From an uncultured Clostridia bacterium (GTDB lineage: Bacteria; Bacillota; Clostridia; Oscillospirales; CAG-272): 60,790 bases of DNA. The notes below the pieces were generated by a model. The model was not told the origin of the DNA. It made no database searches and saw only the letters and a list, made by a program, of their open reading frames with translations. The DNA is taken from NCBI GenBank assembly GCA_944391815.1, contig CALXUV010000066.1, positions 1 through 60,790 on the forward strand. Reading direction: 5' to 3'. The position numbers and the translations under genes were made by a program. Positions 8,063-48,795 of this stretch are shown piece after piece (position 1 is the first letter of the stretch; each line of letters starts with the position of its first letter).

Positions 8063-8080
8063 ATAAATACCTCGCAAACA

Positions 8081-8253: not shown

Positions 8254-8258
8254 TTTCC

Positions 8259-8335: not shown

Positions 8336-8351
8336 GTCAAACGCGTATTAT

Positions 8352-8380
8352 ATTATAATACATTTTTTGGGGTTTGTCAA
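8352..8380 (-). promoter_or_regulatory. tRNA-Ile2 promoter
   Basis: Minus strand TTGACA (8380-8375), 17-nt spacer, TATAAT (8357-8352): a full consensus promoter about 17 nt before the tRNA. Confidence 0.9.
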
Positions 8381-9535: not shown

Positions 9536-9662
9536 TTTTGAATTTTTGCCTCCGCAAGACTTTGTGATGTTGTTTGCCTTTGTTTTTTTCTGGTTTGTGA
9601 CTGTTTTATCGGTTGTAATTGCTTTGCTGTCGGGTGTTGAGCTTTAGGCATTTTTCCGTTTT

Positions 9663-11162: not shown

Positions 11163-11320
11163 TTTGTCTCTCCTCGTTTTTTACTTCGTTGTTGCGCTGC
11201 AGGTTCTGCTTTGAAAAGAATTGCTTTATTTTTGATATGTTGTTCTTTACTTTTTCCGATGTTGCAAGGTTGCGTCAGTATTTTTATACCGGCTGAGCCG
11301 GTTGTTTTTTATCGTACGGT

Positions 11321-11424
11321 GCTGCTTATTTCAGTTTTTAAGGCTGTGAAGAGGTGCGGGTATAAGTCCGCCGCTGCTTATTTCAGTTTTTAAGGCTGTG
11401 AAGAGGTGCGGGTATAAGTCCGCC
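11321..11424. repeat. 52-bp exact tandem duplication of a gene 3' end
   Basis: Positions 11321-11372 and 11373-11424 are identical over 52 bp. The second copy contains the last codons and TGA stop of the UPF0210 gene. The first copy is a non-translated downstream duplicate that includes the same terminal codons and stop. Confidence 0.95.
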
Positions 11425-33351: not shown

Positions 33352-33412
33352 ATTATAATACAGGCAATAACAATGTAATACAGGCAATAACAATGTAATA
33401 CAGGCAATTTGC
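33352..33412. repeat. 20-bp direct repeat, about three copies
   Basis: TAATACAGGCAATAACAATG is repeated head to tail (two full copies and a partial third), just before the bidirectional terminator. Confidence 0.85.
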
Positions 33413-33672: not shown

Positions 33673-34095
33673 TCAATCCGTTTCATCGCTGTTCTTGTTT
33701 CTGAAAACAAAAACCTTGCTGACAACAAATGTCGCCATAATTATTATCATACTTAGAATTATGCGCCCCGGCAGTTTCGGAAAGCCCAGTTTGTCGACGA
33801 CAATGTAAAACAAAAGTGAGTCAATTCCGAGCGATACAACACGCATTATTATAAATTTCACAAACTGTACGGCAGTTTCCGTTTTTCCTTTCACGGTCTG
33901 ATCCGGAGCCGTAAAAACGAAGAGCTTGTTGCAGATATAGTTAATGACAACAGCTACTGCATAGGCGATCCCGTTTGCTACAAGATAGTGCATTATGTCA
34001 AGGTAATCGAGAAATGCGAACAGCAGCAGATTTACAGAGGTTGAAACAACCCCCCAGAATCCGTATTTTATTATTTCTATCAGTTTTTGACGCAT
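33673..34095 (-). CDS. GtrA-family membrane protein (putative polyprenyl-phosphate-sugar flippase)
   Basis: A 140-residue protein with four membrane segments and the family pattern FWGVVSTSVNLLLF, VANGIAYAVAVVINY and NKLFVF, then VVSKVFVFRN at the end. GtrA proteins are thought to flip or hand over polyprenyl-phosphate-linked sugars. It is the last gene of the UbiA-HAD-GT-C-GT4-GtrA operon, 14 nt after the GT4 gene, matching a role in moving a lipid-linked pentose to the outer face. Confidence 0.9.
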   Translation of the reverse strand: MRQKLIEIIKYGFWGVVSTSVNLLLFAFLDYLDIMHYLVANGIAYAVAVVINYICNKLFVFTAPDQTVKGKTETAVQFVKFIIMRVVSLGIDSLLFYIVVDKLGFPKLPGRIILSMIIIMATFVVSKVFVFRNKNSDETD

Positions 34096-34109
34096 ATCTG
34101 CCTCTCGCT

Positions 34110-35219
34110 TTAATTGATTCCGAAAATTGACATATGTCGGTTTACGGTAATTTCCGTACTGTATTTTCCGGAGATTTCCGACTGGCTTTTTTTGTATTTC
34201 TCAGGATTTTCAAGTATTTTCAGTATGCAGTCGGCAAGGTCTTTAGCATCTCCTCTTCTGCAAATCAGACCCATGCCGGTGTTTTGTACTATGGTACGCA
34301 CTCCCGGAAGATCTGACGCCACTACCGGAGCACCGCAAAGCATAGCCTCCACCTGAACCATGCCGAAAGCTTCAAGCGAATTTATGCTCGGCAGTGTAAA
34401 AACGTCAAGCGAAGAGTAGAAATTACCCATTTCTCCCTCCGGAATTTTGCCAATAAATGTAACATCTTCTATTCCGTTTTCATCGATGTAGGTTTTTAGG
34501 GCAGGATAAACCGAACCGCCGGCTACATTAGTGTAATCGCCTCCGATTTTCAGAGCGACGTCACTTCTTTTTTTGCGTATCAAGCTGTAAGCTTTCAGCA
34601 GTACGTCAATTCCTTTTTCCTCAACGATACGCCCACAAAAACCGATGGTTTTCACTTCGGAATTTTTTGAGTTTTCTTCCGGAGCTGAAAATGATTTTAT
34701 CGGAGCGTAAACTTCCTCCGTTTTGTCAAGGAAATCGTTAAGGACCCTGGAATGCGCCGCATAGTCTTTGGTGGTCACGAGAATTTTTGAGGCTTTTTTC
34801 AGGCACTTTCTGTGCTGTCGGTCCATTGTTTTCACAATGAATCCGTTGAGCAGACCGTGCGGAAGGTTTACGTCGCAGTGATAGGTAACAAACAGCTTTT
34901 CTTTCGGTATATGCTTTGAAATAATTCCCGATTCAAGCATCGGCAGGTGCATATTTACTATATCCGCCTTGCCTGAAAGTTTTTTTGCAAGTGAAATGAA
35001 TTTAGGACTTACCGTTCCCTTGCTGATTTTCATCACGATAGGAGCTCTTATCACTTTTACTCCGTTTATCGTTTCTTCCGGGGCAAGTTTGGCGTGGTTG
35101 GAACAAAGAACAGTGCAGTCACAGCCCTTTTGTGCAAGATTCTCTGCTATTATCCTTGCGTATTCGCTGACGCCGCTTACATACGGAAAATAGTAATTGA
35201 GGATGAAAAGTATTTTCAT
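34110..35219 (-). CDS. GT4-family glycosyltransferase
   Basis: A 369-residue retaining GT-B glycosyltransferase. The N-terminal ILNYYFPYVSGVSEYA loop binds acceptor, CGRIVEEKGIDVLL starts the nucleotide-sugar domain, and EAFGMVQVE provides the E-x7-E donor motif. No membrane segment is present, so it acts on the cytosolic side, probably extending a lipid-linked saccharide. It sits in the five-gene operon, with 112 nt between the stop of the GT-C-like gene and its start. Confidence 0.92.
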   Translation of the reverse strand: MKILFILNYYFPYVSGVSEYARIIAENLAQKGCDCTVLCSNHAKLAPEETINGVKVIRAPIVMKISKGTVSPKFISLAKKLSGKADIVNMHLPMLESGIISKHIPKEKLFVTYHCDVNLPHGLLNGFIVKTMDRQHRKCLKKASKILVTTKDYAAHSRVLNDFLDKTEEVYAPIKSFSAPEENSKNSEVKTIGFCGRIVEEKGIDVLLKAYSLIRKKRSDVALKIGGDYTNVAGGSVYPALKTYIDENGIEDVTFIGKIPEGEMGNFYSSLDVFTLPSINSLEAFGMVQVEAMLCGAPVVASDLPGVRTIVQNTGMGLICRRGDAKDLADCILKILENPEKYKKSQSEISGKYSTEITVNRHMSIFGIN

Positions 35220-35331
35220 GTTAATCCTTTCGTTTTTGAATTTCCGGTGTGTTTTGAAATATATTCCGGCTTTCTGTCGGAAAAGCTTACGTCTTTGAAA
35301 ATCCGTGACGTGTTTTTAAAAATCGTGTCTG

Positions 35332-37638
35332 TCACGCGGTTTGCTGAACTTCCGTTACCCTGATGTCGTAGATTGCCGTACTTCCGCCGTTTTCGCTTAA
35401 TACAATATTTATGTCGAGTTTAGAACCGGCAGCTACCGGAAGCGGCAGTGTTACAAATTCCTCTGATGACGTGCCTGTGCCGATAACTTCGTCTCCTATC
35501 TTTACTTCGAACGTTCTCGGGTCTCCGTCCGAAACTGTTTTGAAGGACAAAACAAGCTGTTTTTCTGCATCTGAGTGGTTAAATAGAAATATTTCGGACA
35601 TTGGTTCGAGCACTCTTGCTCTCTGACTGTCACTTACGACTTTGGTTGATCCGAAACCGTAGCTAATTATCGCACCGAAAGGTTTTGTCCTCTCCATGAT
35701 ACAGAAACTTCTGTCGCGGTAAATTTCCTGATAGTCATCGGTATTCAGTGCATCCCCGTATCTTCCGTTGGCGTCAACCGAAAAAATAATATAATTCGGG
35801 ATGTAAGGCAGGTAGGAAACGAAAAATGCGTAGTATGAATCCTTTGTCATCAGGCTTACCGTATGTCCGGTATTTCTTATCGCATAAAGTATAGCGTGGT
35901 TTTCATAATACCAGTTACCGAATATTCCAATCACTTCGTCTTTCGGAATATGTTCGTTTACGGCGGTTTCCAAAGCTGCGATATTGTTCCCGAATGTGAA
36001 ATCCGAACGGGAACTGTCGTAGCTTACGCATACATTCACCATGCTTGTTAAAATCAAAGCGCTGAGCAGCACAGCCGACGCTGTTTTTCCGAATATACTG
36101 TATCTTTTCTTTATAAATGCGGTTACTTTGTTTTCGGAAGGTGAGTCGCCGGAGGTGGGATCCGGAGCTACGTCAGCTGCTTTTTTACTTAACAGTGCTG
36201 AAATTCCGTGATATACAAAATAAAACGCAATTACAAAGCAGAGCCACATCACAAGGTGCAGGTGCTTGAATTCTCCGTAAGCGTATTTTTTCAGTCTGAA
36301 GAAAATCCAGTAAACCCAAAAAAACGCAAGCGACGACAGAAGATAAATTTCTTTTACCCCGTGTTTTTTCACAATACCCACGATCATTGCGGCGAAAAGC
36401 ACCAGAACCATTATCGGAATGATAATTTTGGCAATCATAAATATGAAAGCGGGAATGGCGAATTTTCCGATGAAAATTTTGTCTTCGGTTACATTGGGGC
36501 TGAAGTTGAAAAAATAATAAAGGAATTTTTTTATATCGATAATGTTGCCGCCATAGGGATCTATGTTACCGAGGTCTCCGAGATTTGAAAGGAGAATATC
36601 AAGATTGAATCTGACGGCTTTCACGAAACCGGGAATGTTGAGAAGAGCAGTTAATACAAGCATGTAAACCGTGCTTAGAATGTTCGTAAATATTTTCTTT
36701 GCATCCTTTAAGCAGAAGCAGCTGATTATGAAAGCGATTCCGAAAACCGCAACTGTGTATGTCAGATATTCACAGTAAACAGCAAATATTCCGGCAAGCA
36801 TTACAGCGGGAAGAATTATGCTGAGAGCATCTTTTTTTTCGTTGAACCAGAACCGGTAAGTAAGTCCGAAAAAGACAATGAACATTGATATGCCGAAAAT
36901 CTGCGGTGCATACTGCTGACGCACAAGCTCTGCAATTCCTGTTCCCGTTCCGAGGAAAAGGATAAAAACGTCTGTAAGTCCGCCTTTAAGATCAAGAACG
37001 TTTTTGCAAAGCCAGGTTACGGCAAAAACACACAGAACAGAGAAGAAGGCGGTCATCGGCCAGTATATCTGATGCGGCTCAAATCCCGTAAAACTCAGAA
37101 TCACCGCTCCGAAAATATCGGTACCTATGCGGGTGGTGTCCTTCATATAAGCGGCAAGCGATGTGTAAGGATGAAAGGCATCGTAGGATATGTTATCGAA
37201 ATAACCGTTGTCTTTCAGCCATTCCATGTCTGCAAGGTAGTAAATTATATCGTTATTGCCGAAGTTAAGACTTATCATCTGCTCATAAACAGTAAAAGGC
37301 AGAAGAATAAGAAATGCCGAAATAAAGCAGGTGACAAGTAATGTCTTGTGTTTCAACAGAGCGGATAAGCGATTTTTCAGTTCATGCCTGAAAAGATACA
37401 GCGAAAAAACAAAGAAAGGCAACACCGCAAGAGAAACAGCTTTTATCGGCAGAAAAAGGTTGAAAAACTGAAAAAAACAAACAGTAACGGAAGCTCCGAT
37501 CAGCGGAAGCAGAAGAAGATCAGTATCCTTTTCCGATTTGTAAATTCGTTTCACAGCACCCGAGACCACAGTTCCTACGGAAAAACAAACGAGTAAAACG
37601 CATAAAACAATAAAAATTCCGAGCAACCCGAAAAGCAT
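35332..37638 (-). CDS. large polytopic membrane protein, GT-C glycosyltransferase-like
   Basis: A 768-residue protein with about a dozen membrane segments up to residue 525, followed by an extracytoplasmic region of about 240 residues that ends in a beta-rich stretch. Asp130 in the first outer loop (NFGNNDIIYYLAD) fits the catalytic Asp position of GT-C enzymes, which use polyprenyl-phosphate sugars. I recognise no specific family. Its position between the UbiA/HAD pair and GT4/GtrA suggests it is the transferase that spends the lipid-linked pentose. The stop of the HAD gene lies 1 nt upstream. An O-antigen-like polymerase or PMT-like enzyme are alternatives. Confidence 0.7.
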   Translation of the reverse strand: MLFGLLGIFIVLCVLLVCFSVGTVVSGAVKRIYKSEKDTDLLLLPLIGASVTVCFFQFFNLFLPIKAVSLAVLPFFVFSLYLFRHELKNRLSALLKHKTLLVTCFISAFLILLPFTVYEQMISLNFGNNDIIYYLADMEWLKDNGYFDNISYDAFHPYTSLAAYMKDTTRIGTDIFGAVILSFTGFEPHQIYWPMTAFFSVLCVFAVTWLCKNVLDLKGGLTDVFILFLGTGTGIAELVRQQYAPQIFGISMFIVFFGLTYRFWFNEKKDALSIILPAVMLAGIFAVYCEYLTYTVAVFGIAFIISCFCLKDAKKIFTNILSTVYMLVLTALLNIPGFVKAVRFNLDILLSNLGDLGNIDPYGGNIIDIKKFLYYFFNFSPNVTEDKIFIGKFAIPAFIFMIAKIIIPIMVLVLFAAMIVGIVKKHGVKEIYLLSSLAFFWVYWIFFRLKKYAYGEFKHLHLVMWLCFVIAFYFVYHGISALLSKKAADVAPDPTSGDSPSENKVTAFIKKRYSIFGKTASAVLLSALILTSMVNVCVSYDSSRSDFTFGNNIAALETAVNEHIPKDEVIGIFGNWYYENHAILYAIRNTGHTVSLMTKDSYYAFFVSYLPYIPNYIIFSVDANGRYGDALNTDDYQEIYRDRSFCIMERTKPFGAIISYGFGSTKVVSDSQRARVLEPMSEIFLFNHSDAEKQLVLSFKTVSDGDPRTFEVKIGDEVIGTGTSSEEFVTLPLPVAAGSKLDINIVLSENGGSTAIYDIRVTEVQQTA

Positions 37639-37639
37639 A

Positions 37640-38221
37640 TCATTCTCCTTTCACGTCAGAAAATTCTTTAAAAACACATTCGGAGACAGTTTTGTTTTTG
37701 ACAAAATAGCCTTTTTTCGCGATTTTAAGCATCGGTATATCGCTTTTTGAGTCGGAGTAAGCCGCCTCTGCCGTATTTATTCCGATTTCACTTAGTCTTC
37801 TTACTTTTTCCTGTCCGCGGCAGTTCGGAGTTGTAAACGATCTTGTTTTTACGTCAAATCCCGATGCTATCAAACCAATGTCAAGTACAGCCGCTATCTC
37901 ATTCAGAAGAAATTCCGGCGACGCTGAAACTACATAGTCTCCCGGTTTTTTCACCTTGAAAAACCACTCACAGATATTACTTTTTTCTTTTTGCCAGAAG
38001 TTTTTGACAGTAAGATCAATGTCTTTGAAATACCTGACAAAGAAAAAAAATCTGCTTTTGTATTTTTCTTTGCTCACCAGCTTCAGCTCATAAAGTATTG
38101 TGTAAAAAACCTGCATCGGAAGCCCGAGTGCGATATAAGGTTTGATTTTCATGCAGTAAAGCCAGAATCTGACGGTGCTGTCGTATTTATAGATTGTTTT
38201 GTCAAAATCAAAAAGGTTCAT
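37640..38221 (-). CDS. HAD-superfamily (IB-like) phosphatase
   Basis: A 193-residue HAD hydrolase. Motif I DFDKT (5-9) supplies the nucleophile and acid/base Asp, VSASPEF is motif II (Ser), and YSDSKSDIPML is motif IV; Lys before it fits motif III. The short alpha-helical cap resembles SerB-like enzymes. It lies 8 nt after the UbiA-family gene, the arrangement expected for a phosphatase that removes the 5-phosphate from polyprenyl-phosphate-phosphoribose. That substrate is inference from context. Confidence 0.85.
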   Translation of the reverse strand: MNLFDFDKTIYKYDSTVRFWLYCMKIKPYIALGLPMQVFYTILYELKLVSKEKYKSRFFFFVRYFKDIDLTVKNFWQKEKSNICEWFFKVKKPGDYVVSASPEFLLNEIAAVLDIGLIASGFDVKTRSFTTPNCRGQEKVRRLSEIGINTAEAAYSDSKSDIPMLKIAKKGYFVKNKTVSECVFKEFSDVKGE

Positions 38222-38229
38222 TTTACCTC

Positions 38230-39138
38230 CTAAACAAGTTCGCCGAGTTTATGAAGAAAATCCACCGGAATGTAAATGATTACGAAGATATACAGACAGT
38301 AAAGCGCAACCAGTCCGAGCAGCAGATAATCCTTTAAAAGAACATTTATCGGGTCTCCGTCGGATGCGGAATGAACATCGTAACTGTAACGAACGAAAAT
38401 AAGCATTACGATTATTATTGACCATTCAAAGCCGGGGTTTGCATATGCGCTGCCGTCGTTCATTATACACCAAAGAGAGTAGAACACCAGTACAAGCGTC
38501 TGAAACACGCTTAGCTGTTTATCAAGAAAGTCAACGGAATATTTGCGGTTGACTTCACGGGTTATCTCTGTTTCTTTAAGTATTTCGCCGCGGCGTTTAC
38601 CGAACCCCATGTAGAATGCGGCGCTTATTACGGTCGCAAACAGCCAGGTGGATACCCCCACATTTATTATTACTCCGCCGAACATCAGTCGCAGTGCAAA
38701 ACCGCTCACCAACAAAATAATATCAATTATCGGGATGTTTTTGCCTCCGAAGCTGTAAAGCAGGTTTATAATAACGTAAGATACAAGAAAAACAGTGCCC
38801 ATAAGACTGTTTATTATAAACAGAGAAATCCCGCAGAGTACGGCGAGCACCGCTTCAATCACTATTGCTGCCGGAATGGATATGGCACCGCTGGCTATCG
38901 GGCGTTTTGATTTAGTGGAATGAAGTCTGTCCTTTTCCGCGTCGCGGATATCGTTGACTATATAGACCATTGAAGAAGCGAAGCAGAATGAAATAAACCC
39001 TAAGACACATGTAATAGCCATGTTCAGGTTCAGTAGATTTATGGAAAAAAACAGTGGCAGGAATACCAGCCCGTTTTTCACATAATGCTTTATGCGCATC
39101 AGTTTAAGTACGTTTTTTGTTGTAGATAAAGCTGACAT
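38230..39138 (-). CDS. UbiA-family prenyltransferase, polyprenyl-phosphate phosphoribosyltransferase-like
   Basis: A 302-residue integral membrane enzyme with about eight helices. NDIRDAEKD (62-70) is the first Asp-rich Mg-binding motif, followed by KSKRPIASG. The second conserved block LLYSFGGKNIPIIDI then FALRLMFGG and GKRRGE closely resembles decaprenyl-phosphate phosphoribosyltransferase (mycobacterial UbiA/Rv3806c, Azorhizobium NoeC) more than quinone or heme enzymes. It should join PRPP to polyprenyl phosphate. It is the first gene of a tightly spaced five-gene operon behind its own promoter. Confidence 0.85.
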   Translation of the reverse strand: MSALSTTKNVLKLMRIKHYVKNGLVFLPLFFSINLLNLNMAITCVLGFISFCFASSMVYIVNDIRDAEKDRLHSTKSKRPIASGAISIPAAIVIEAVLAVLCGISLFIINSLMGTVFLVSYVIINLLYSFGGKNIPIIDIILLVSGFALRLMFGGVIINVGVSTWLFATVISAAFYMGFGKRRGEILKETEITREVNRKYSVDFLDKQLSVFQTLVLVFYSLWCIMNDGSAYANPGFEWSIIIVMLIFVRYSYDVHSASDGDPINVLLKDYLLLGLVALYCLYIFVIIYIPVDFLHKLGELV

Positions 39139-39210: not shown

Positions 39211-39239
39211 AATATACCACATTTTACGCCGAAAATCAA
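39211..39239 (-). promoter_or_regulatory. promoter of the polyprenyl-pentose operon
   Basis: Minus strand TTGATT (39239-39234), 17-nt spacer, TATATT (39216-39211), about 70 nt before the first gene. Confidence 0.75.
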
Positions 39240-39452
39240 CCCTTTTTGAAAAATAGGGGCACAAGACAAGGCAAGGCACGGAAAACCGTAAAACCTAATG
39301 TTTTCGTAAGGTGATAAGGTTTTTGCATAAAAATTCTTATTCTGACAAATAATATCAAGGCGAAGAGTTTTTTGCCGGACCGATACCGGAATACCGTAAA
39401 ATCAGGCAAAGAAACGAATTACTAAAAAGTGCGAAGGAGAATTACCGATAAA

Positions 39453-40016
39453 ATGAAAGCAACCGGAATAGTCAGAAGAATAGATGATCTCGGAAGAGTT
39501 GTTATACCCAAAGAAATAAGAAGAACCATGAGAATAAGAGAGGGCGATCCGCTTGAAATATACACTGACAGAGAAGGAGAGGTTATATTCAAGAAGTATT
39601 CGCCGATAGGCGAGATGAGCTCGTTTGCACAGCAGTACGCAGAGACGCTCAGTAAAATTTGTTCGCTCAGCGTAGTGGTGACGGACAGGGACAGCGTCAT
39701 AGCCTGCGCAGGTTTGCCGAGAAAAGAATATTATGAAAAGCGGCTTTCGGCAGACCTTGAAAAAATTTCGGAAAACCGTCAGGGATACCGATACAGAGCC
39801 GGCGACAGAAAGCTTGCCATAGTAGACGACGCTTCCGGCAGTCATTTTATATCGTGTGCGTTTCCGATAATAGCGGACGGAGATCTTATAGGTACTGTTG
39901 TATCGGCTATGACCGCCGAGGCGGCTTCCGGAAAAAAGGAGGAAAACAAAAGCGAGGACGTCGAATACCGGCTTATACAGACGGCAGCGGCTTTTCTCGC
40001 AAAACAGCATATCTGA
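39453..40016 (+). CDS. spoVT: stage V sporulation protein T (AbrB-type regulator)
   Basis: A 187-residue DNA-binding regulator that controls forespore genes late in sporulation. The N-terminal swapped-hairpin AbrB domain is clear (GIVRRIDDLGRVVIPKEIRR, then LEIYTDREG); residues 55-185 form the GAF-like ligand domain (SLSVVVTDRDSVIACAG). The ATG at 39453 is chosen by homology; AAGGAG lies a longish 13 nt upstream. It shows the organism is descended from, or is, a spore former. The next genes downstream are on the same strand, but a terminator follows. Confidence 0.94.
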   Translation: MKATGIVRRIDDLGRVVIPKEIRRTMRIREGDPLEIYTDREGEVIFKKYSPIGEMSSFAQQYAETLSKICSLSVVVTDRDSVIACAGLPRKEYYEKRLSADLEKISENRQGYRYRAGDRKLAIVDDASGSHFISCAFPIIADGDLIGTVVSAMTAEAASGKKEENKSEDVEYRLIQTAAAFLAKQHI

Positions 40017-40049
40017 ATTATAAACCATAGTCCGGACTTGACCGGGCAG

Positions 40050-40087
40050 GGACTGCATGCGGTTTTTCCGCAAGCGGTCCTTTTTTA
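40050..40087 (+). terminator. spoVT terminator
   Basis: GGACTGC and GCGG pair with CCGC and GCGGTCC (40050-40080), followed by TTTTTT. The remaining 400 bp to the next gene hold no feature I can support. Confidence 0.85.
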
Positions 40088-40512
40088 CTTTGCTGTCCGC
40101 TTATTCGTAATTTCTGGTTTCTGTTGCCTGAGTTTGATATTTTGCGCAGAGACTTTTATTACATAACTTCTTTTTAATGCCGCTGTCACACATTGAGCTT
40201 AATGTCCGTAGGCGTTATTTGAGAGTGTTTTCGGTTTTTCCGGGGCTATCTTATTCGGTTGGAGTTCGGTTACCGGATGTGCGGAATTTTGCTTTTTATA
40301 TAACTTTCCCGATAAAAACGTGATTTTTTTGTCTTATTGAGTTTTTTTCGTCTTTCCGGAAAAGTAACCCTTTTCGGCAAACGACATATATTGTACCGTG
40401 GCCGGTTTGCGGACCCGACTGTTTGTTTCGGGTTCGCTTCGGAATTTCCGGAAAGTACTAATTACGCGGCGTATTTTCCGTTATTGCCGGAGCCGCACGG
40501 CAGGTGGTGATT

Positions 40513-40761
40513 ATGTCGGAGAACAGTTTAAAATCGAAGCTTTCAAAACTCAGTGATGACGAACTTTACAAACTCATTTATGCGGTCTGCACAGCGGCAG
40601 GGCTTGAAAAACAGAAAGCCGATTACCTCACTTCTGATATTCCGAAACTTCGCAGAATGCTCACAGCTTTGAGTGACAAACAGATATCCTCACTTCTTGC
40701 TTCTCTCGGCACTGCGGATGCGGGAGAGATAATCAACAAACTCGGACAGGGCGGAAGATGA
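40513..40761 (+). CDS. small helical protein of unknown function
   Basis: An 82-residue soluble, all-helical protein that I do not recognise. It has leucine-rich heptads (LSKLSDDELYKLIYAVC, IPKLRRMLTALSDKQISSLL) and a Gly-rich end (GQGGR). AGGTGG precedes the ATG at 40513. It is followed 29 nt later by the repeat protein, whose ends have similar short helices, so the two may be related or interact. Confidence 0.65.
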   Translation: MSENSLKSKLSKLSDDELYKLIYAVCTAAGLEKQKADYLTSDIPKLRRMLTALSDKQISSLLASLGTADAGEIINKLGQGGR

Positions 40762-40790
40762 GCTTATTTGCGGCAGAAGGGGGTGGTTAA

Positions 40791-41579
40791 GTGGACGGTA
40801 CGAAATTTGCTGAGCTGATGCCTTTGATCGGCAAGTTGGCGGAAAATCCCGGGGTTCTCAGTATGCTTGGCAGTCTTTTTTCCTCCGGAGGCGGAAAAAG
40901 TCCGGGCGGGACTGGGCAAGGCAATAACAATGATATGATGGCAAACCTTGCAAAAGCCGTAAGCTCGCTTGGCGGGAATTCCGGAAAGGGCGACAGCGGC
41001 GAAATGATGGCAAACCTTGCAAAGGCTGTAAGCTCGCTCGGCGGGAATTCCGGACAGGGTGAAAGTGGCGAGATGATGGCAAACCTTGCAAAGGGTGTAA
41101 GCTCGCTCGGCGGAAATTCCGGACAGGGCGAAAGTGGCGAGATGATGGCGAACATTGCGAAAGCCGTAAGTTCGCTCGGCGGGAATTCCGGACAGGGCGA
41201 AAGTGGCGAAATGATGGCAAACCTTGCAAAAGCCGTAAGCTCGCTTGGCGGAAATTCCGGACAGGGCGACAGCGGCGAAATGATGGCAAACCTTGCGAAA
41301 GCCGTAAGTTCGCTCGGCGGGAATTCCGGACAGGGCGGTAATAGTGATATGCTGTCAACCCTTATTAAGGCGATGAGTTCGGCGGGGGGAAGCGGTAATT
41401 CCGTCAGTCGCCCCGATCCGGTGTTCGGAAGTAAGGAGGAAATAAAAAACCGAATACTTCTTTTGAATTCAGTCCGGCCTTATCTGAGCGAGGAACGGCG
41501 GCAAAAACTTGAAACCGTAATACGGTTGCTGAGAGTAGCCGAAGCCGGAAAATTAAATTCACTGCTATCCGGAAAGTGA
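40791..41579 (+). CDS. protein with six 23-residue amphipathic helix/Gly-Ser repeats
   Basis: A 262-residue protein of unknown function starting at GTG (40791), with AAGGGGGTGG upstream. After a helical N-terminus (about 1-33) and a Gly-rich linker come six near-identical units of the form MMANLAKAVSSLGGNSGQGE, 23 residues (69 bp) each, and a diverged seventh. The C-terminal 55 residues are a charged helical cap (EEIKNRILLLN, EERRQKLETVIRLL). Each unit looks like a short amphipathic helix plus flexible linker. It lies between spoVT and a D,D-carboxypeptidase gene, so a spore or envelope role is possible but unproven. Confidence 0.75.
   Translation: MDGTKFAELMPLIGKLAENPGVLSMLGSLFSSGGGKSPGGTGQGNNNDMMANLAKAVSSLGGNSGKGDSGEMMANLAKAVSSLGGNSGQGESGEMMANLAKGVSSLGGNSGQGESGEMMANIAKAVSSLGGNSGQGESGEMMANLAKAVSSLGGNSGQGDSGEMMANLAKAVSSLGGNSGQGGNSDMLSTLIKAMSSAGGSGNSVSRPDPVFGSKEEIKNRILLLNSVRPYLSEERRQKLETVIRLLRVAEAGKLNSLLSGK
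40933..41350 (+). repeat. 69-bp coding tandem repeat, six copies
   Basis: In-frame units with very similar DNA, including GGCGGGAATTCCGGACAGGG and ATGATGGCAAACCTTGC blocks. The period is an exact multiple of three, so expansion or contraction keeps the reading frame. Confidence 0.92.
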
Positions 41580-41590
41580 GGTGAAAGCAG

Positions 41591-42136
41591 ATGTATACCA
41601 GAAATTACCGGATACAGAAGGAAGAACGGCCGGAAATAAAACCCATTTTGCAGAAAGAGGAACGACCGGACTTAAAACCGGAAATCAGTGCCGGACAGGT
41701 TGCTTCAGCGACTGAAGAAAACACGGCAAAAGACACGGAAAACGACGCCAAAGTGTGTCAGATGACAAATCCTGAGGCAGAAGACGTTACTGATCTGCAG
41801 GATGAGGACAAAGATAATCCCGACGGATGCACGGTGCGTAAAAAAAGATTCAGAGCGGTGCGTTTAAGAGAAAAAGGAGTCGGACAGAATCTGGAAGATG
41901 TATGTCAGGATGAGCCGTACTGGGACTGTTGCGAAAATTTCGGAGACGGTTGTGTAAATAACGGAGAGGAATGCGTAAAAACCGTTTGCGATGGCGCAGA
42001 GACAAAGGATATTTGCTTTCAAAGCTGCACTCCTCTTTGCAAAGACACTTTGCTGATACTTGCGCTTATAGTTATGCTTTTGCTCGAAGGCAGCGACGAT
42101 ATTCTTATTATTGCTCTCGCTTTTTTGCTGTTCTGA
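41591..42136 (+). CDS. acidic/Cys-containing protein with hydrophobic C-terminus, function unknown
   Basis: A 181-residue protein. The N-terminal 25 residues contain two copies of a QKEERP element (EERPEIKPIL, EERPDLKPEI), then an acidic low-complexity stretch. A Cys-rich middle follows (CQDEPYWDCCENFGDGC, CVKTVC, CFQSCTPLC), and a C-terminal hydrophobic segment LALIVMLLLEGSDDILIIA ends in LLF. AGGTGA lies 6-8 nt before the ATG. The short hydrophobic tail with an acidic kink resembles small spore-associated proteins of Firmicutes. I cannot assign it to a family. Confidence 0.65.
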   Translation: MYTRNYRIQKEERPEIKPILQKEERPDLKPEISAGQVASATEENTAKDTENDAKVCQMTNPEAEDVTDLQDEDKDNPDGCTVRKKRFRAVRLREKGVGQNLEDVCQDEPYWDCCENFGDGCVNNGEECVKTVCDGAETKDICFQSCTPLCKDTLLILALIVMLLLEGSDDILIIALAFLLF

Positions 42137-42277
42137 ATCTTTGCGGCTGCTTTTTTCATTGTAACTGAATTTATTAAGTATTTTCAGGCTTCTTTTTTGC
42201 GGTATAGAATAAACGGACGACCGTTCTCATATATATTTATAAACTATACCGAAACTGAAAAAGGAAGGGCATCGAAA

Positions 42278-43408
42278 ATGAAAAAAGTAGCTTTGGTTTT
42301 GCTTGCGGCTGTTATGATTTTGTCAGTTTTCCCGGTTGCGGGTTACGCCGAAAGCAAATATGACGCAAAATCCGTGATACTTATGGAAGCGGAAACCGGC
42401 ACTGTTCTTTACGAAGAAAACAGCGACCTTCCGCTTCCGCCGGCGTCGGTGACAAAAGTAATGACAATGCTTCTGGTTATGGAAGCGATAGATTCCGGTC
42501 AGATAAAGCTGACAGATATGGTGACAGTCAGCGCAAATGCCGCAGGCATGGGCGGTTCTCAGGTTTATCTCGAAGAAAACGAGCAGATGAGCGTTGACGA
42601 AATGCTGAAATGCGTTGTGGTCAGCTCCGCAAACGACGCCTGCGTAGCACTTGCAGAGTTTATAGCGGGAAGCGAAGAGGCTTTTGTGGAAAAGATGAAC
42701 AAAAGAGCCGCAGAGCTCGGTATGACGCATACATCCTTTGAAAACACAAACGGACTTGACGACGATACGGTAAATCATGTCATAAGCGCAAGAGATATTG
42801 CGATAATGAGCGCAGAGCTGATAACAAAACATCCGAAGATACTCGAATATTCATCCATCTGGATGGACAGTATACGAAATGGGGAGTTCGGACTTACAAA
42901 CACCAACCGTCTTATCCGTTTTTACAGCGGAGCAAACGGACTTAAAACCGGTTCGACATCAAAAGCCGGATTCTGCATCAGTGCAAGCGCGAAACGTGAA
43001 GGAATGCAGCTTATCTGCGTGGTTATGGGAGCGCCGAGCAGGGACAGCAGAAATGAAACCGCAAAAAAACTTCTCGATATGGGATTTGCCGGTTATGCAT
43101 ACGAGGATTTCCCGGGAGGAAATATCGACGCAGTTAAGGTTACGGGTTCTGTGAAAAAAGAAATACCGCTCGTTTTCGGCGATTTTGATACTGTTGTAGA
43201 AAAGCAGTATGCCGGAAAGATACAGTCGGAAATGATACTGCCTGACTCTGTTTGTGCGCCGGTTGAGAGCGGTCAGAAAGTCGGAGAGATAGTATATAGT
43301 CTTGACGGCAGCGAGCTTGCCCGTGTACCGATATGCGCGGCGGAGGGGGCAGGAAGAATCACATACGGAGAAATATTTTATCAGCTTCTCACTGAGTTTC
43401 TCTTCTGA
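42278..43408 (+). CDS. D-alanyl-D-alanine carboxypeptidase (S11, DacF/PBP5-like)
   Basis: A 376-residue secreted penicillin-binding protein that trims peptidoglycan pentapeptides. An N-terminal signal peptide (MKKVALVLLAAVMIL, cleavage after AGYA) is followed by catalytic S-x-x-K in ASVTK, S-x-N in SSAND, and KTGST. The C-terminal domain is beta-rich. AAGGAAGGG precedes the ATG at 42278. DacF-type enzymes act on forespore cortex peptidoglycan, which fits the adjacent spoVT and unknown genes; a vegetative DacA role is also possible. Confidence 0.93.
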   Translation: MKKVALVLLAAVMILSVFPVAGYAESKYDAKSVILMEAETGTVLYEENSDLPLPPASVTKVMTMLLVMEAIDSGQIKLTDMVTVSANAAGMGGSQVYLEENEQMSVDEMLKCVVVSSANDACVALAEFIAGSEEAFVEKMNKRAAELGMTHTSFENTNGLDDDTVNHVISARDIAIMSAELITKHPKILEYSSIWMDSIRNGEFGLTNTNRLIRFYSGANGLKTGSTSKAGFCISASAKREGMQLICVVMGAPSRDSRNETAKKLLDMGFAGYAYEDFPGGNIDAVKVTGSVKKEIPLVFGDFDTVVEKQYAGKIQSEMILPDSVCAPVESGQKVGEIVYSLDGSELARVPICAAEGAGRITYGEIFYQLLTEFLF

Positions 43409-43561
43409 TATCCTTGCCCGATGACGTCAATTTTCGGAGATTTTGATTTTGCTGTTAATTTTTTACAGTATATATCCGGATCAGCCTGCTGTCAGCCTCA
43501 GGAAAATTAACATGCTGTTTTTACTGCGTTAAATAAAAAAGAAAAAATTTCGCGTTTGGTA

Positions 43562-43590
43562 TTGACTTTTGAAGGATTGTATGGTAATAT
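43562..43590 (+). promoter_or_regulatory. promoter of the surface protein gene
   Basis: TTGACT (43562-43567), 17-nt spacer, TAATAT (43585-43590), about 90 nt before the ATG. Confidence 0.75.
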
Positions 43591-43683
43591 GAGTAAAAAA
43601 GGAGATAATCTCCGAAAGTAAGTGTTTTCCGTCGCTCTGAGACGTGAATTCACAAAAACACAGAAGGATAAAGAGAGGGTTTT

Positions 43684-46600
43684 ATGATGAAACATCGTAT
43701 ATTCGGTGCGGTAGCGGCGATGCTTATGATTGTTGGCATGGTAGTGCTGGCGTTCAGTATATCCGCTTTTGCTGTCGGGGAGACGGTAGAAATTTCCAAT
43801 ACTGACCAGCTTTCCGATGCTATCGCAAATCAGAAAGAGGGGCAGACCTGGGTTATAAAACCCGGTACATATACGCTGACGCAGGCTGACCTCGATAAGT
43901 ATGCGGATTGGAAAAATCCCATAACCAGCTCACAGACCGATTGGTATTTCCCCATTTACGTCAAAGATATTACCATCATCGGTGAGACGGGTGAGAACGG
44001 TGAAAGAGTTGTTCTTACATCGGATGTTGTCAGAGAAAACGGAGTCTGGGCAAGCCAGGATTTTATTTCGGTTTGGGCAGACGGTGTGACAATCGAGAAT
44101 GTTGATATCATGTCAAAACAGGAAATCAACAAAGCAGTAGAAGTCATGGCAAAGGACTTCACGCTCAAAGACAGCGAGATTCTTCCTTATGAGAATGAAG
44201 ATAAAACAGTCTTCAGCGGTTCGGTTTACTTTAACACAGCGGATATCGGAACTTCCCTTGTTCAGAATGTCACCATGTACGCATGGATAAACGCCAGAGC
44301 TGTCACGACCGGTACTGTTGTGGTTGATAACCTTGTTCAGGATTTCAGTAACAACGAATACGCCGGATTCAGTACTCCCGAGAATGGTTATGCTTGGAAA
44401 CCCGGGGTAAGCGGCACTCAGGTGGAAATAAAGTCCTTCACTATAAAGGTTGACGGAAAGTCGAATTTCACTGAGCAGGTTATACATGATGAACTTAAAC
44501 CCGGAACAACCATAGTCCTTACCGGCAACATTGAAGTTGATGAAATGGTGAATATAAACAAGGATGACATTACCCTTGACCTCAATGGCTTCACACTGAC
44601 AGCTTCTGAGAATTTCACCAACACCTGGGAAAACGGAAACGATTCGCATTTGCTCCAGGTACTCAGTGCAAGCAACGTTACAGTGAAGAACGGTAAGCTT
44701 GTGACAACCGAGAAAAACAAACATGCCCTTAATATATATGAGTCGGCAGGTGTGGTCGTGGAAGGAATCGAGATAGACCATACTCTCACAAGAGGCGGTG
44801 CTCCGATAGTTATAAATGCATCCGACGTGACCGTTGAGGGTAAGCTTGACCTGACAGCAGGTGAGAACTCTTGGTACGGTATAAACGTAGACCCGAGAGA
44901 TGCCGCTGCATCGCTTGAGTTTGCAGCTGAATCACAGGTTGCAATGAAGAATGCCGAGGGTGTTGCTGACGAAAAGGCAATAATCAAAACGGATAACGAA
45001 TCTGCCGGACTCAACATCAGCGGAACGACCGCAGCAGGCATTCCTGCTGATATGATAGTAGGCAGTTCAGAAGACGGAACAGGCCATGCACATACTCCTG
45101 CAACAGAATGGTCTACTGACGGCGAGTATCATTGGTACGCCTGTACGGGCTGTGCAATAACATTTGACAAAGCCGCACATGCTTTCGGTGAGGAAGAAAT
45201 CGTAGTTGACGAGGACGATCCGTCGAAAGCGACAGTGGTTCACGAGTGCGATGTTTGCAAATACAAGGAAGAAGTATACGGAATTCGTTACATTTCAAGT
45301 GTCGGACAGCTTTCAGATGCGATAAGAGATCAGAAAGCCGGAGAAGTATGGTACATTAAACCCGGTACATATACGCTCACACAGGAAGACCTTGACAAGT
45401 ACGCAGCCTGGGAAAACCCCGGAAACAGTCCTAAGAGTGGCTGGTATTTCCCGATCCATGTTGATAACCTTTCGATAATCGGAGAAACCGGTGAAAACGA
45501 CGAAAGAGTTATTATTACCACTGACGTGGTGACTCCCAACGGAGATTTGCCGACCCAGAGCTTTATCGCGGTATGGTCTGATGGAGTGTCCATTGATAAT
45601 ATTGATATTAAGTCGAAGACTGTGCAGAATAAAGCTTTTGAAATATTCGGAAAAGATTTCAGTCTTAAAAATTCAACGATAATGGCTGTTGAGTATCCTA
45701 CGTCAACAGAAGGAAAAGTTTACAGCGGTTCTATATTCTTCAACCCGTGGGGTGACGACGATTCTGTCGGAAATGCAGTTCTTGAAAACATATATATGTA
45801 TGCGTTCATCTCTGCAAGCTATGCTACAGCAGGAAATATTGATGTTTCCAACATAACAATGGATTTTTCCAACAACACGTGGAGCGATTGGGGAATAGGA
45901 TACGGTCCTGCGATTACCGGTGACATATACGGAAAAGTTGAGGGCATTACCTACCTCGTAGACAACGATGCGGTTTGGGAAGAGATAATCAGCGCTGCCT
46001 CTCCGTATTACGGCGATACGAAACCCGGAACGGTTATAAAATTCACGGAAGATATTACGGTAGACAAGATATTTGATATTTCCAGATCTGACATTGTGAT
46101 TGACTTTGACGGTCATACTTTGACAGCTTCGGATGCGTTTACTTCAACATATGAAAATGATTCACATCTTGTTCAGATTTCCGGAGATAACGTCACACTG
46201 AAAAACGCAAAGATCGTGACAACATCAGCAAATAAGCATGGAATAAATATTTACCAGGCAACCGGTGTAGTTCTTGAAAATGTAACGGTAGATCATACCG
46301 AATGCACAAAAGGAGCACCTATCGTGATTAATGCTTCTGAAGTAACGGTAAAGGGAGCTCTTGATCTGACTGTAGGTGAAAATTCCTGGTACGGCATAAA
46401 CGTTGACCCTAAAGAAGGAACCGCTGCACTTGATTTTGCAGAAGACTCAAGCCTTGTAATGCAGGGAGCCAAGAAACCGGTAATGACAGTAGACGGGGAC
46501 AAAACGAAAGTTGAGATAACCGGCGAAGAAAACGTAGGAATTGAGACCGGTGCAGACGGTAGCTACCATAAACCCACTGGCGAAATAAAGTATGACGAAA

Positions 46601-47496
46601 ACGGTCACTGGGAAGTCTGCGAAAGCTGCGACGTGAAAATCAATCCGCAGGAACATCGTATTTCAGCAGCATGGTATTACGACGGAGAAAACCACTGGCA
46701 TCAGTGCCTTGATTGCGGATACATGATCGATGTTGCTCCCCATAATGCAATACATGCGGTAGAGGATGATCCGTACTTCGTTTCCGATGCTACTTGCACC
46801 GAAGGCAAAAAGTATTACAGAAGCTGTGAATGCGGATGTGCCGGAGATGAAACGTTTACAGTCGGCGAACCGCTCGGACATAAGTGGGAAACAGTTCCCG
46901 CTAAAGCTCCTGACTGTGTGTCTGAAGGTTGGAACGAACATCAGGCATGTACCGTATGCGGCGAAACAGAAGGCAAGGAAACTGTTCCGGCACTCGGACA
47001 CAGCCTTGTCAAGACTGACAGAAAAGAAGCAGACTGCGTAAATGCCGGAAACATCGAGTATTATACCTGCTCTACTTGCGGTAAGATTTACAGAGATGCT
47101 GACGGAACGCAGGAAATAACCAAAGAGCAGACAGTAATTGCAGCTCTTGGACACAGACCCGGTTCGTTTGTAGTAGAGAGAGAAGCTACCTGCGCTCAGG
47201 CCGGAACTCAGGCTAAATACTGCACAGTATGTAACGCTGAGGTAGAAAGAGAAGAAATTCCCGCTCTTGCTCATACGTTCGGAGATTGGACGGTAGTCAA
47301 AGAAGCTACCGAAAAAGAAAAAGGTCAGGAAGAGAGAGTTTGCAGCGTTTGCCAGTTCAAGGAGACTCGTGACATCGATGCTCTTGGCGGCGGACTTTCC
47401 ACAGGTGCAATTGTCGGTATAGTTATCGCAGTTGTAGTGGTTCTTGCCGGCGGCGGATTCTGTGTATACTGGTTCGTAATCAGAAAGAAATCCTGA
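43684..47496 (+). CDS. large anchored surface protein with duplicated beta-helix-like modules and Cys-pair repeats
   Basis: A 1270-residue exported protein. It has a signal peptide (cleavage near Ala30) and module A (about 33-465). A His/Cys repeat segment follows (about 470-530), then module B (from about 533), which repeats module A almost block for block (QLSDAI, KPGTYTLTQ, NIDIKSK-like, INVDP, SWYGI). Next comes a run of Cys-pair repeats (CESC, CLDC, CTVC, CSTC, CSVC, each with a PALGH-type His). It ends in a membrane segment (about 1240-1262) and the cytosolic tail RKKS. No LPxTG is present. The modules look like right-handed beta-helices. Carbohydrate binding or adhesion is inferred. 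Confidence 0.85.
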   Translation: MMKHRIFGAVAAMLMIVGMVVLAFSISAFAVGETVEISNTDQLSDAIANQKEGQTWVIKPGTYTLTQADLDKYADWKNPITSSQTDWYFPIYVKDITIIGETGENGERVVLTSDVVRENGVWASQDFISVWADGVTIENVDIMSKQEINKAVEVMAKDFTLKDSEILPYENEDKTVFSGSVYFNTADIGTSLVQNVTMYAWINARAVTTGTVVVDNLVQDFSNNEYAGFSTPENGYAWKPGVSGTQVEIKSFTIKVDGKSNFTEQVIHDELKPGTTIVLTGNIEVDEMVNINKDDITLDLNGFTLTASENFTNTWENGNDSHLLQVLSASNVTVKNGKLVTTEKNKHALNIYESAGVVVEGIEIDHTLTRGGAPIVINASDVTVEGKLDLTAGENSWYGINVDPRDAAASLEFAAESQVAMKNAEGVADEKAIIKTDNESAGLNISGTTAAGIPADMIVGSSEDGTGHAHTPATEWSTDGEYHWYACTGCAITFDKAAHAFGEEEIVVDEDDPSKATVVHECDVCKYKEEVYGIRYISSVGQLSDAIRDQKAGEVWYIKPGTYTLTQEDLDKYAAWENPGNSPKSGWYFPIHVDNLSIIGETGENDERVIITTDVVTPNGDLPTQSFIAVWSDGVSIDNIDIKSKTVQNKAFEIFGKDFSLKNSTIMAVEYPTSTEGKVYSGSIFFNPWGDDDSVGNAVLENIYMYAFISASYATAGNIDVSNITMDFSNNTWSDWGIGYGPAITGDIYGKVEGITYLVDNDAVWEEIISAASPYYGDTKPGTVIKFTEDITVDKIFDISRSDIVIDFDGHTLTASDAFTSTYENDSHLVQISGDNVTLKNAKIVTTSANKHGINIYQATGVVLENVTVDHTECTKGAPIVINASEVTVKGALDLTVGENSWYGINVDPKEGTAALDFAEDSSLVMQGAKKPVMTVDGDKTKVEITGEENVGIETGADGSYHKPTGEIKYDENGHWEVCESCDVKINPQEHRISAAWYYDGENHWHQCLDCGYMIDVAPHNAIHAVEDDPYFVSDATCTEGKKYYRSCECGCAGDETFTVGEPLGHKWETVPAKAPDCVSEGWNEHQACTVCGETEGKETVPALGHSLVKTDRKEADCVNAGNIEYYTCSTCGKIYRDADGTQEITKEQTVIAALGHRPGSFVVEREATCAQAGTQAKYCTVCNAEVEREEIPALAHTFGDWTVVKEATEKEKGQEERVCSVCQFKETRDIDALGGGLSTGAIVGIVIAVVVVLAGGGFCVYWFVIRKKS

Positions 47497-47558
47497 TTAG
47501 ACATCGTTATCTTTAATCGTTTTGATTCTGATTTTCAGATTTAATTAATTCAATAATT

Positions 47559-47592
47559 AACCCGGCTCCGTTTAAGCGTAGCCGGGTTTTTG
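47559..47592 (+). terminator. surface protein gene terminator
   Basis: AACCCGGCT (47559-47567) pairs with AGCCGGGTT (47580-47588), followed by TTTTTG. Confidence 0.92.
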
Positions 47593-48103
47593 TGTTAAAA
47601 ATTTGTTTAAATGAAATTTGTATAAATGAAACTTTATGCCCTGTTAATTTTGAATTTGCGATAAAATCAAAATTAAATTTACATCTGATTTCACATCCCG
47701 CTTGATTTGCCTGATATTGAGTTTGGTCAGGTTAAAGTTCATCGAATAAAATGATTTGTACGCATTTTTATTTAAAAAATCGCATGTTTCATACGCATCA
47801 ATAATTTTGAAATCAAGATTATTTTACATATTTGAAATTGAGAAAGTGCGATATTCCCTACATACTGAAAATCGAGAAAGCAGAATTATTTCTGCGCATC
47901 TGAAATTCGAATGAATTTTCAAGCATGTTCAAAATTCAGGAAATATTTACTTGCAATTCACCGGTATTTATCAAACATCAAGTATAATAGTACGAAATCG
48001 GACTATTATCTTAAACGGGACAACGAACTGCTGCAAAAGTTGCAGACGGCATGATTTTTGACGATAATTTGTGCAGTTATATAATCCTTTCCATAAAGTT
48101 TTC
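47593..48103. other. intergenic stretch without a supported gene
   Basis: AT-rich spacer. Only diverged short direct repeats (ATTTGAAATTGAGAAAG-like) are visible. Confidence 0.5.
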
Positions 48104-48313
48104 ATGGGCGGAAATTGATTAGCAGAAAACCATGATTCGAATTTTATGGGCAGAAATTGATTAGCGGTAATCCTTGATCCGAATTTCATGGGCGGAAATT
48201 GATTAGCAGAAAACCATGATCCGAATTTTATGGGCGGAAATTGATTAGCAGAAAACCGTGATTCGAATTTGATGAGCAGAAATAGTTTAGCAGAAATCCG
48301 TGAGCAAAAATTT
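48104..48313. repeat. 42-bp tandem repeat, five copies
   Basis: The ATG of the block ATGGGCGGAAATTGATTAGC recurs at 48104, 48146, 48188, 48230 and 48272, exactly 42 bp apart. The array ends about 35 bp before the MarR gene, so it lies in its untranslated leader or promoter. Confidence 0.93.
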
Positions 48314-48348
48314 ATGGCAGAATTAGATGAACAGAAAGAAAAGTAGCA

Positions 48349-48792
48349 ATGAAAGTCAAAGCAACACGAGAACTTGTAAGAATAAACAGCCTTGTAAGTG
48401 AAATTGACAGGGCGTATCATCAGGCAGCGTCAAATTTCGGGCTGACTGACAGTATAATGAATATTTTGTACGCCATCTGCAATTATGGGGATGATGTACA
48501 GGTATCGGAGCTTGTCGCTTTGACTTCAATGCCAAAGCAAACGCTCAACTCAGCTCTCAGAAAATGCGAAAAAGCCGGACTTACCGAAATAGAAGTAACT
48601 TCGCATAAAAATAAAAAAGTGAAGCTGACGTCCGAGGGCAAAGCTCTTGCCGAAAAAACGGTAATTAAAATAATTGATACAGAAAACAGAGTGCTTTCGG
48701 ATTTTACATCACAGGAAAGAGAGGATTATATAAGGCTTATGCAAAAATTCCTCGATATGTTCAAAGCACGGATACAGGATATTAAGGAGTAA
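48349..48792 (+). CDS. MarR-family transcriptional regulator
   Basis: A 147-residue winged-helix regulator. Helix-turn-helix VSELVALTSMPKQTLNSAL and the wing ending in KNKKVKLTSEG are seen. It overlaps no other gene and is followed 3 nt later by a MATE transporter gene, so it probably controls that pump. The ribosome site is weak (AGAAAGAAAAG), and five 42-bp repeats lie directly upstream. Confidence 0.9.
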   Translation: MKVKATRELVRINSLVSEIDRAYHQAASNFGLTDSIMNILYAICNYGDDVQVSELVALTSMPKQTLNSALRKCEKAGLTEIEVTSHKNKKVKLTSEGKALAEKTVIKIIDTENRVLSDFTSQEREDYIRLMQKFLDMFKARIQDIKE

Positions 48793-48795
48793 ATC

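What the first reader, a model, noticed from the sequence alone, without database searches (positions are those of the whole stretch)
33673..39138. Five-gene operon that looks like a polyprenyl-phosphate-pentose (ribose or arabinose) donor pathway in a Firmicute
Seen: UbiA-type enzyme with NDIRDAEKD and a YSFGGKNIPIIDI-type second block, HAD phosphatase, a 768-residue membrane protein with an Asp (130) in its first outer loop, GT4 and GtrA, on one strand with gaps of 8, 1, 112 and 14 nt behind one promoter. Known: UbiA homologues (Rv3806c, NoeC) make decaprenyl-phosphate-phosphoribose from PRPP, a phosphatase removes the 5-phosphate, GtrA-like proteins move lipid sugars and GT-C enzymes use them. 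Inference: this operon makes and spends such a donor, and lacks any DprE1/DprE2 epimerase, so ribose rather than arabinose is likely. The GT-C protein family is not recognised.
Basis: partly seen in the sequence, partly recalled or inferred. Interest (0 to 1): 0.72.

Follow-up and report, generated by a model that had tools for sequence, protein, structure and literature searches.

The report
Clostridial operon for lipid-carried ribose decoration
A gut Clostridia genome carries a five-gene operon that most likely makes a lipid-carried ribose and attaches it to a surface sugar chain outside the cell, a recently described kind of pathway seen here with a membrane enzyme of no recognised family and at a site where a relative carries a different sugar-making operon.

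Summary
The five genes are real and as described. The UbiA protein belongs with decaprenyl-phosphate phosphoribosyltransferases (196.6 bits, cut-off 207; quinone, heme and glyceryl-lipid families 36 bits or less) and keeps 9 of 12 functional residues of the solved Rv3806c enzyme. A HAD phosphatase, a 768-residue membrane protein, a GT4 and a GtrA follow. The same order recurs in one same-genus genome at another site. PF04030, the DprE1 domain family, was found in 0 of 18 genomes searched, which favours ribose. This is the kind of pentofuranose system published in 2024 for Citrobacter (PMC11127046), but with separate HAD and with GtrA instead of MATE. The GT-C identity of the 768-residue protein is inferred from topology and synteny: it has no recognised family and both structure predictions failed. 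New here: in the closest relative, matching DNA stops 76 bases before the UbiA start, just past a shared promoter block, and a CDP-deoxysugar cassette follows. A third genome has a fuller form of that cassette with GT2 and GtrA, without the block. This looks like a swap site for surface-sugar modules.

The parts
39211..39239 (-). promoter TTGATT-17-TATATT with TG before the -10; its -35 end lies in a 26-nt block (39231-39256) shared with genome G473
   Evidence: Listed in the scan; the block is exact and single-copy in G000 and G473, absent at up to 3 mismatches from the other 5 of 7 same-genus genomes, 0 in the reversed control; aligned
38230..39138 (-). UbiA-fold polyprenyl-phosphate phosphoribosyltransferase (302 aa)
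   Evidence: PRK12324 196.6 bits, cut-off 207; PDB 8j8j E 3.5e-31; 9 of 12 functional residues identical
37640..38221 (-). HAD-IB phosphatase (193 aa), likely removes the 5-phosphate
   Evidence: PF12710 61.1 bits; TIGR01490 53.4 bits, below its cut-off 98.3; DFDxT, [ST]ASPxF and YSDSx[ST]D shared with 5 of 6 aligned relatives, the sixth (L016) being a short ORF without the last motif; partial HAD fused to UbiA in L033, HAD fused to membrane proteins in L018 and L025
35332..37638 (-). 768-aa membrane protein, probable GT-C glycosyltransferase: 14 hydrophobic segments, outer loop with FxNND130, C-terminal outer domain of 230 residues
   Evidence: Topology by hydropathy; residues conserved with its single relative L015; weak NCBIfam LIC_10190 hit 26.9 bits, cut-off 100; no usable model
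34110..35219 (-). GT4 glycosyltransferase (369 aa), best conserved of the five with L015 (68%)
   Evidence: PF00534 122.9 bits; identities
33673..34095 (-). GtrA-family membrane protein (140 aa), probable flippase
   Evidence: PF04138 77.1 bits
33428..33448 (-). terminator-like hairpin with T run, about 225 nt beyond the operon
   Evidence: Scan hits 33448-33433 and 33445-33428; 14 such sites found in the region, 6.0 expected

Best explanation
An extracytoplasmic pentose-glycosylation cassette. UbiA transfers 5-phosphoribose from PRPP to a polyprenyl phosphate on the inner face of the membrane (inferred from homology and active-site residues). The HAD protein removes the 5-phosphate (inferred). 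GtrA flips polyprenyl-phosphate-ribose outward (inferred). The 768-aa protein, a probable GT-C, moves ribofuranose onto a surface glycan, with its C-terminal domain perhaps binding that glycan (inferred, weakest step). The GT4 probably adds a sugar to the cytoplasmic acceptor (guess). With no DprE1-type domain found, the sugar is probably ribose. The cassette occupies a site where a sister species carries a different sugar cassette behind the same promoter block.
For: UbiA family scores: PRK12324 models 196.6, 173.7 and 133.6, PRK08238 161.4, then an unspecified prenyltransferase model PRK12884 59.5, ubiA_proteo 35.9, heme o synthase 28.7, GGGP synthase 27.4 bits. Rv3806c residues R22, K28, Y70, N73, D77, K87, R90, Y138, K143 identical and invariant in 15 of 15 aligned proteins (the window's and 14 from the 30 loci). 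Only one PF01040 protein was found in the genome. Five-gene synteny in L015, at a different site. PF04030 in 0 of 18 genomes searched, out of 19 handles given and 40 UbiA genomes or loci at hand; it rings in 3 of 14 controls, C. glutamicum among them. In 15 of 30 UbiA loci a multi-TM ORF of 400 aa or more is directly adjacent, against 44 of 326 other ORFs in those loci (Fisher p 8e-6; ORFs of one locus are not independent). 6 of 16 large membrane proteins near UbiA match PMT_2 at E 1e-3, 4 above cut-off. A Lactococcus plasmid has membrane protein-UbiA-HAD-GtrA in an annotated capsule cluster. The chemistry is shown experimentally for Citrobacter ORF15 and ORF12 (PMC11127046, sections 7, 9, 12 read).
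Against: UbiA scores 10 bits below the curated cut-off. K208 of Rv3806c is Glu here, Q135 is Asn and Y157 is Phe. HAD is recognisable in only 10 of 30 loci and GtrA in 3 of 30. The 768-aa protein matches no GT-C family; profile comparison with four membrane-protein groups from the other UbiA loci gave at most 23% probability, and 10 of the 16 membrane proteins scanned do not match PMT_2. Absence of PF04030 does not exclude an unrelated epimerase, and the genome is 94.5% complete. No acceptor is known.
Confidence: 0.74

Rival explanations
1. The lipid-linked pentose is epimerised (to arabinose or xylose) by an enzyme encoded elsewhere before transfer.
For: An epimerase gives xylose in the Citrobacter system and DprE1/DprE2 give arabinose in mycobacteria (PMC11127046). 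The same-genus operon continues into a sugar dehydratase gene (L015 13305-14309).
Against: No epimerase gene in the window operon; PF04030 in 0 of 18 genomes searched. The L015 gene is a clear dTDP-glucose 4,6-dehydratase (TIGR01181, 490.7 bits), not a pentose epimerase.
Confidence: 0.18
2. The UbiA protein is a prenyltransferase of quinone, heme or glyceryl-lipid type and the operon has another role.
For: PF01040 covers all of these; an unspecified prenyltransferase model, PRK12884, scores 59.5 bits.
Against: The quinone, heme and glyceryl-lipid models score 36 bits or less against 196.6. Read by eye in the alignment, the positions of Tyr70 and Arg90 of Rv3806c are Phe and Gln in the 4tq3 prenyltransferase, while the window has Tyr and Arg.
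Confidence: 0.03
3. The donor is made as proposed, but the 768-aa protein is not a sugar transferase: for example it is a polymerase, ligase or transporter.
For: No family hit above cut-off; no confident model; no PDB relative by sequence.
Against: Acid-bearing long outer loop, outer motifs kept between the two known members (NIDPYxGNI, YAYGExKHxH) and an outer C-terminal domain. Foldseek's first 50 rows for that domain hold many carbohydrate-binding modules beside unrelated proteins, but none reaches E 1e-3 and the model is poor. Near other UbiA genes several membrane proteins match PMT_2.
Confidence: 0.2

Closest known systems
Three-component pentofuranose system of Citrobacter youngae O1/O2 (ORF15, ORF14, ORF12/GT136; PMC11127046)
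   Same: UbiA-fold phosphoribosyltransferase plus HAD phosphatase, a flippase and a large multi-TM protein; ribose needs no epimerase
   Different: HAD is a separate protein, flippase is GtrA instead of MATE, an extra GT4 is present, and the membrane protein has 14 hydrophobic segments with its acid after the fourth (ORF12 is described with 11 helices and Asp31 near the first)
Mycobacterial decaprenyl-phosphoryl-arabinose pathway (Rv3806c and following steps)
   Same: Phosphoribosyltransferase of the same family; small flippase (Rv3789 is called SMR-family in PMC11127046; GtrA-like from recall)
   Different: Different phosphatase family (Rv3807c); no DprE1-type domain found here; Emb/Aft transferases not recognised here
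GtrA/GtrB/Gtr(type) O-antigen glucosylation
   Same: GtrA flippase and a large membrane enzyme in one operon
   Different: No GtrB-type GT2 in the operon; UbiA plus HAD make the lipid-linked sugar

Membership tests
Polyprenyl-phosphate phosphoribosyltransferase (PRK12324 / Rv3806c) | Best family match and curated score cut-off | tested here: inconclusive
   Best match, 196.6 bits, but cut-off is 207; of 295 genomes of the order, 12 match and 7 pass the cut-off, the window's own not among the 7
Polyprenyl-phosphate phosphoribosyltransferase (PRK12324 / Rv3806c) | PRPP, Mg and lipid-phosphate binding residues of Rv3806c | tested here: met
   9 of 12 identical, 2 conservative (Q135N, Y157F), 1 changed (K208E) (residues from PMC10994848 passages)
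Polyprenyl-phosphate phosphoribosyltransferase (PRK12324 / Rv3806c) | Transfers phosphoribose from PRPP to polyprenyl phosphate | not testable with these tools
   Needs an enzyme assay
Three-component pentofuranose system | HAD-family phosphoribose phosphatase with the synthase | tested here: met
   PF12710 HAD gene 8 nt away; activity untested
Three-component pentofuranose system | MATE-family flippase | tested here: not met
   Operon has GtrA (PF04138) and none of its five proteins matches MATE
Three-component pentofuranose system | GT-C glycosyltransferase | tested here: inconclusive
   No Pfam family, models at pLDDT 37 and 46; topology fits
GT136 | Sequence relation to Citrobacter ORF12 | not tested
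   No GT136 sequence or model was at hand; described topology differs
Arabinose (DprE1/DprE2) pathway | DprE1-type oxidase (PF04030 domain; that DprE1 carries it is recalled) | tested here: not met
   0 of 18 genomes incl. the window's; 3 of 14 control genomes ring, C. glutamicum among them. DprE2 not tested
Quinone / heme / GGGP prenyltransferases | Scores of those families | tested here: not met
   35.9, 28.7 and 27.4 bits with cut-offs of 275.45, 210.3 and 296
GtrA/GtrB/Gtr systems | GtrB-type GT2 polyprenyl-phosphate sugar synthase in the operon | tested here: not met
   The only soluble glycosyltransferase of the five is GT4

The most novel reading that the evidence does not exclude
The promoter beside spoVT is a swap site for whole extracytoplasmic glycosylation modules in a genus of gut Clostridia: a ribose module (UbiA, HAD, new GT-C family, GT4, GtrA) in one species and a CDP-deoxysugar module (large membrane protein, RfbF, CDP-glucose dehydratase, RfbH, TPP enzyme) in its sister; a third genome has the CDP module with GT2 and GtrA next to dacF, without the shared promoter block. 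This would be a gram-positive counterpart of O-antigen seroconversion cassettes, with a new GT-C family that uses polyprenyl-phosphate-ribose.
Probability: 0.4. Interest if true: 0.6.

Novelty: new variant of a known kind. Interest (0 to 1): 0.5.

Why it matters
It points to lipid-linked ribose decoration of surface glycans in gut Clostridia. It offers a candidate new GT-C family and shows gene fusions (UbiA-HAD, HAD-membrane protein) that tie the steps of the pathway together. The promoter-proximal cassette exchange gives a testable model for how surface sugars diversify between close gut species.

Tried and rejected
GT-C structure: two AlphaFold jobs with two-sequence alignments gave pLDDT 37 (whole protein) and 46 (C-terminal 226 residues). 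Foldseek on the second gave no match at E 1e-3 or better, so I draw no fold conclusion.

GT-C relatives: none by genome contigs pattern scan, own genome only in 147 genomes of the order, 3 of 295 in the family (own, G434 and one weak match with stops), 2 of 341 in the class (own and one weak match with a stop), 2 of 7 in the genus. Sequence searches of the PDB with the window protein, with its two-row alignment and with three of the other membrane-protein groups gave nothing useful. The LIC_10190 lead gave only sub-cut-off matches, in 4 of 59 genomes, the window's own included.

Profile comparisons with four other membrane-protein groups were not significant. The HAD protein has no PDB relative by sequence. 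Viral contigs: no relative of the UbiA profile. Phages: one unannotated record at 30% identity. Plasmids: 92 records match; 25 were listed and I opened the context of one, the Lactococcus record. Foreign origin by base composition: operon G+C 41.6% against 43.8% for the rest, within the spread, so not claimed. No UbiA tree was built.

Rows dropped: I used the 30 loci only; the loci were left out because their flanks are about 1.5 kb. In one search, two of the 12 matching genomes are weak (E about 6e-4). For one search I gave 19 handles of 40 at hand; one (L017) was not held, leaving 18.
Full report
WHAT IS THERE. Five genes on the minus strand run from UbiA (38230-39138) through HAD, a 768-aa membrane protein and GT4 to GtrA (33673-34095), with gaps of 8, 1, 112 and 14 nt. 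Upstream and divergent lies a spoVT-like gene (39429-40016; this name and dacF below are recalled from the protein sequences). Beyond the operon is a terminator-like hairpin. The nearest relative with a public title, L015, is a Clostridia MAG from sheep colon. A gut Clostridia host is thus inferred: the GT-C match of genome G434 (L046), same genus as the window, lies in DNA identical to L015 over the 100-base stretch compared.

THE DONOR MAKER. NCBIfam ranks decaprenyl-phosphate phosphoribosyltransferase first (196.6 bits, cut-off 207); PRK08238 (482 positions, matched at 190-478) is third at 161.4. The best model outside these is an unspecified prenyltransferase, PRK12884, at 59.5 bits; the quinone, heme and glyceryl-lipid families score 36 bits or less. 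The solved Rv3806c chain 8j8j aligns over residues 8-279 (E 3.5e-31). Of 12 functional residues named in PMC10994848 (passages seen), 9 are identical, 2 conservative and 1 changed. The nine are invariant in 15 of 15 proteins aligned, namely the window's and 14 taken from the 30 loci. Only one PF01040 protein was found in the genome, so it does not look like a spare quinone enzyme.

THE PHOSPHATASE AND FLIPPASE. The HAD protein has the motifs DFDxT, [ST]ASPxF and YSDSx[ST]D, shared with five of the six relatives aligned with it; the sixth, in L016, is a short ORF that lacks the last motif. In L033 a partial HAD domain is fused to UbiA, and in L018 (two genes) and L025 (one gene) HAD is fused to multi-TM proteins. 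Those fusions tie synthase, phosphatase and membrane enzyme together. GtrA is supported by PF04138. Of the 30 loci, 3 have a GtrA near UbiA (L015, L019, L036), and two more (L017, L035) have an SMR/EamA-like small protein there.

THE MEMBRANE ENZYME. Hydropathy gives 14 segments in both the window and L015 proteins. If the N terminus is outside, the loop with FxNND130, the NIDPYxGNI loop, the YAYGExKHxH loop and the last 230 residues all lie outside. That suits a GT-C that meets a flipped lipid sugar, but the fold is not shown: both models were poor. In the 30 UbiA loci, 15 have a large multi-TM ORF directly adjacent, against 44 of 326 other ORFs. The 42 large membrane proteins (400 aa or more) collected near UbiA, plus the window's, fall into 15 sequence groups, nine of them singletons. 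One group is partly linked through HAD domains and includes the fused UbiA-HAD of L033 itself, and some members may be polymerases or flippases. Of 16 such proteins scanned, 6 match PMT_2 at E 1e-3 and 4 pass its cut-off. So one donor maker seems to serve several unrelated transferases; this is an inference from neighbourhood.

WHICH PENTOSE. PF04030, which rings in the C. glutamicum control, is in 0 of 18 UbiA-carrying genomes searched, the window's included. L015's operon runs on into a dTDP-glucose 4,6-dehydratase, which is not a pentose epimerase. Ribose is the simplest reading; an unrelated epimerase is not excluded.

WHERE IT SITS. In genome G473, whose spoVT protein is 95% identical, DNA matches the window in pieces from 39214 to 50127. 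Left of 39214, that is from 76 bases before the UbiA start, the genes differ: a 736-aa membrane protein, glucose-1-phosphate cytidylyltransferase, CDP-glucose 4,6-dehydratase, RfbH and a TPP enzyme cut by the contig end. The conserved DNA includes CTATTTTTCAAAAAGGGTTGATTTTC, exact and single-copy in both genomes and absent, at up to 3 mismatches, from the other 5 of 7 genomes of the genus. With TTGATT and a -10 seventeen bases on (TATATT here, TATCAT there), it reads as a promoter. A third genome, G392, carries four of the CDP-module genes at 77-89% identity to G473's, with two related membrane proteins (59%), a MATE gene, a GT2 and a GtrA on one strand. There the module borders dacF, with a further gene between dacF and spoVT, and the promoter block is not found. 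The operon of L015 sits between different genes. So the window's operon looks like one of several interchangeable glycosylation modules. With one pair of genomes at the exact junction and the other end unseen, this is a strong hint, not proof.

AGAINST THE LITERATURE. Kelly et al. 2024 (PMC11127046; outline, passages and sections 7, 9 and 12 read) showed the UbiA-HAD synthase and a GT-C transferase (GT136) biochemically, and point to gram-positive candidates in a supplementary figure that I could not read. So the pathway kind is known. The listings of my searches showed no paper on this operon, on a GtrA-containing version in Clostridia, or on the spoVT swap site; the library holds open-licence papers only and I did not search for the swap site by name. 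What differs here from Citrobacter is the separate HAD, GtrA in place of MATE, the added GT4 and the unrecognised transferase.

VERDICT. New variant of a known kind. Donor synthesis is likely, ribose probable, GT-C inferred, acceptor unknown. The Lactococcus plasmid version sits in an annotated capsule cluster, with an LCP family gene two genes beyond GtrA on the other strand. LCP proteins attach glycans to the wall (recalled), so a wall or capsule polysaccharide is the most likely acceptor class.

Noticed in passing
L049 (plasmid pLLF27D of Lactococcus sp.), 7380-12656: Membrane protein-UbiA-HAD-GtrA inside an annotated capsule cluster near an LCP gene, on a plasmid typed as mobilizable.
   Followed up: partly
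L018 8876-13059 and L025 4201-6288: HAD phosphatase domains fused to the N terminus of large multi-TM proteins, beside a UbiA phosphoribosyltransferase.
   Followed up: partly
L018 1123-3432 and L025 949-3258: A 769-aa protein that joins a membrane part with weak, sub-cut-off similarity to repeat-unit polymerases to a GT4-like part (L025 copy scanned).
   Followed up: no
40791-41579: Protein with many near-identical repeats (GEMMANLAKAVSSLGGNSGQG), near spoVT; its counterpart in G473 has 164 aa against 262.
   Followed up: no
43684-47496: Large protein (1270 aa) with a secretion-signal-like start, whose counterpart in G473 is 826 aa.
   Followed up: no
33360-33409: About two and a half direct repeats of acaggcaataacaatgtaat beyond the end of the operon, read by eye.
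   Followed up: no
MT837543.1 (phage record), 5063-5743: A 30% identical stretch to the UbiA protein in an unannotated phage record from human faeces.
   Followed up: no
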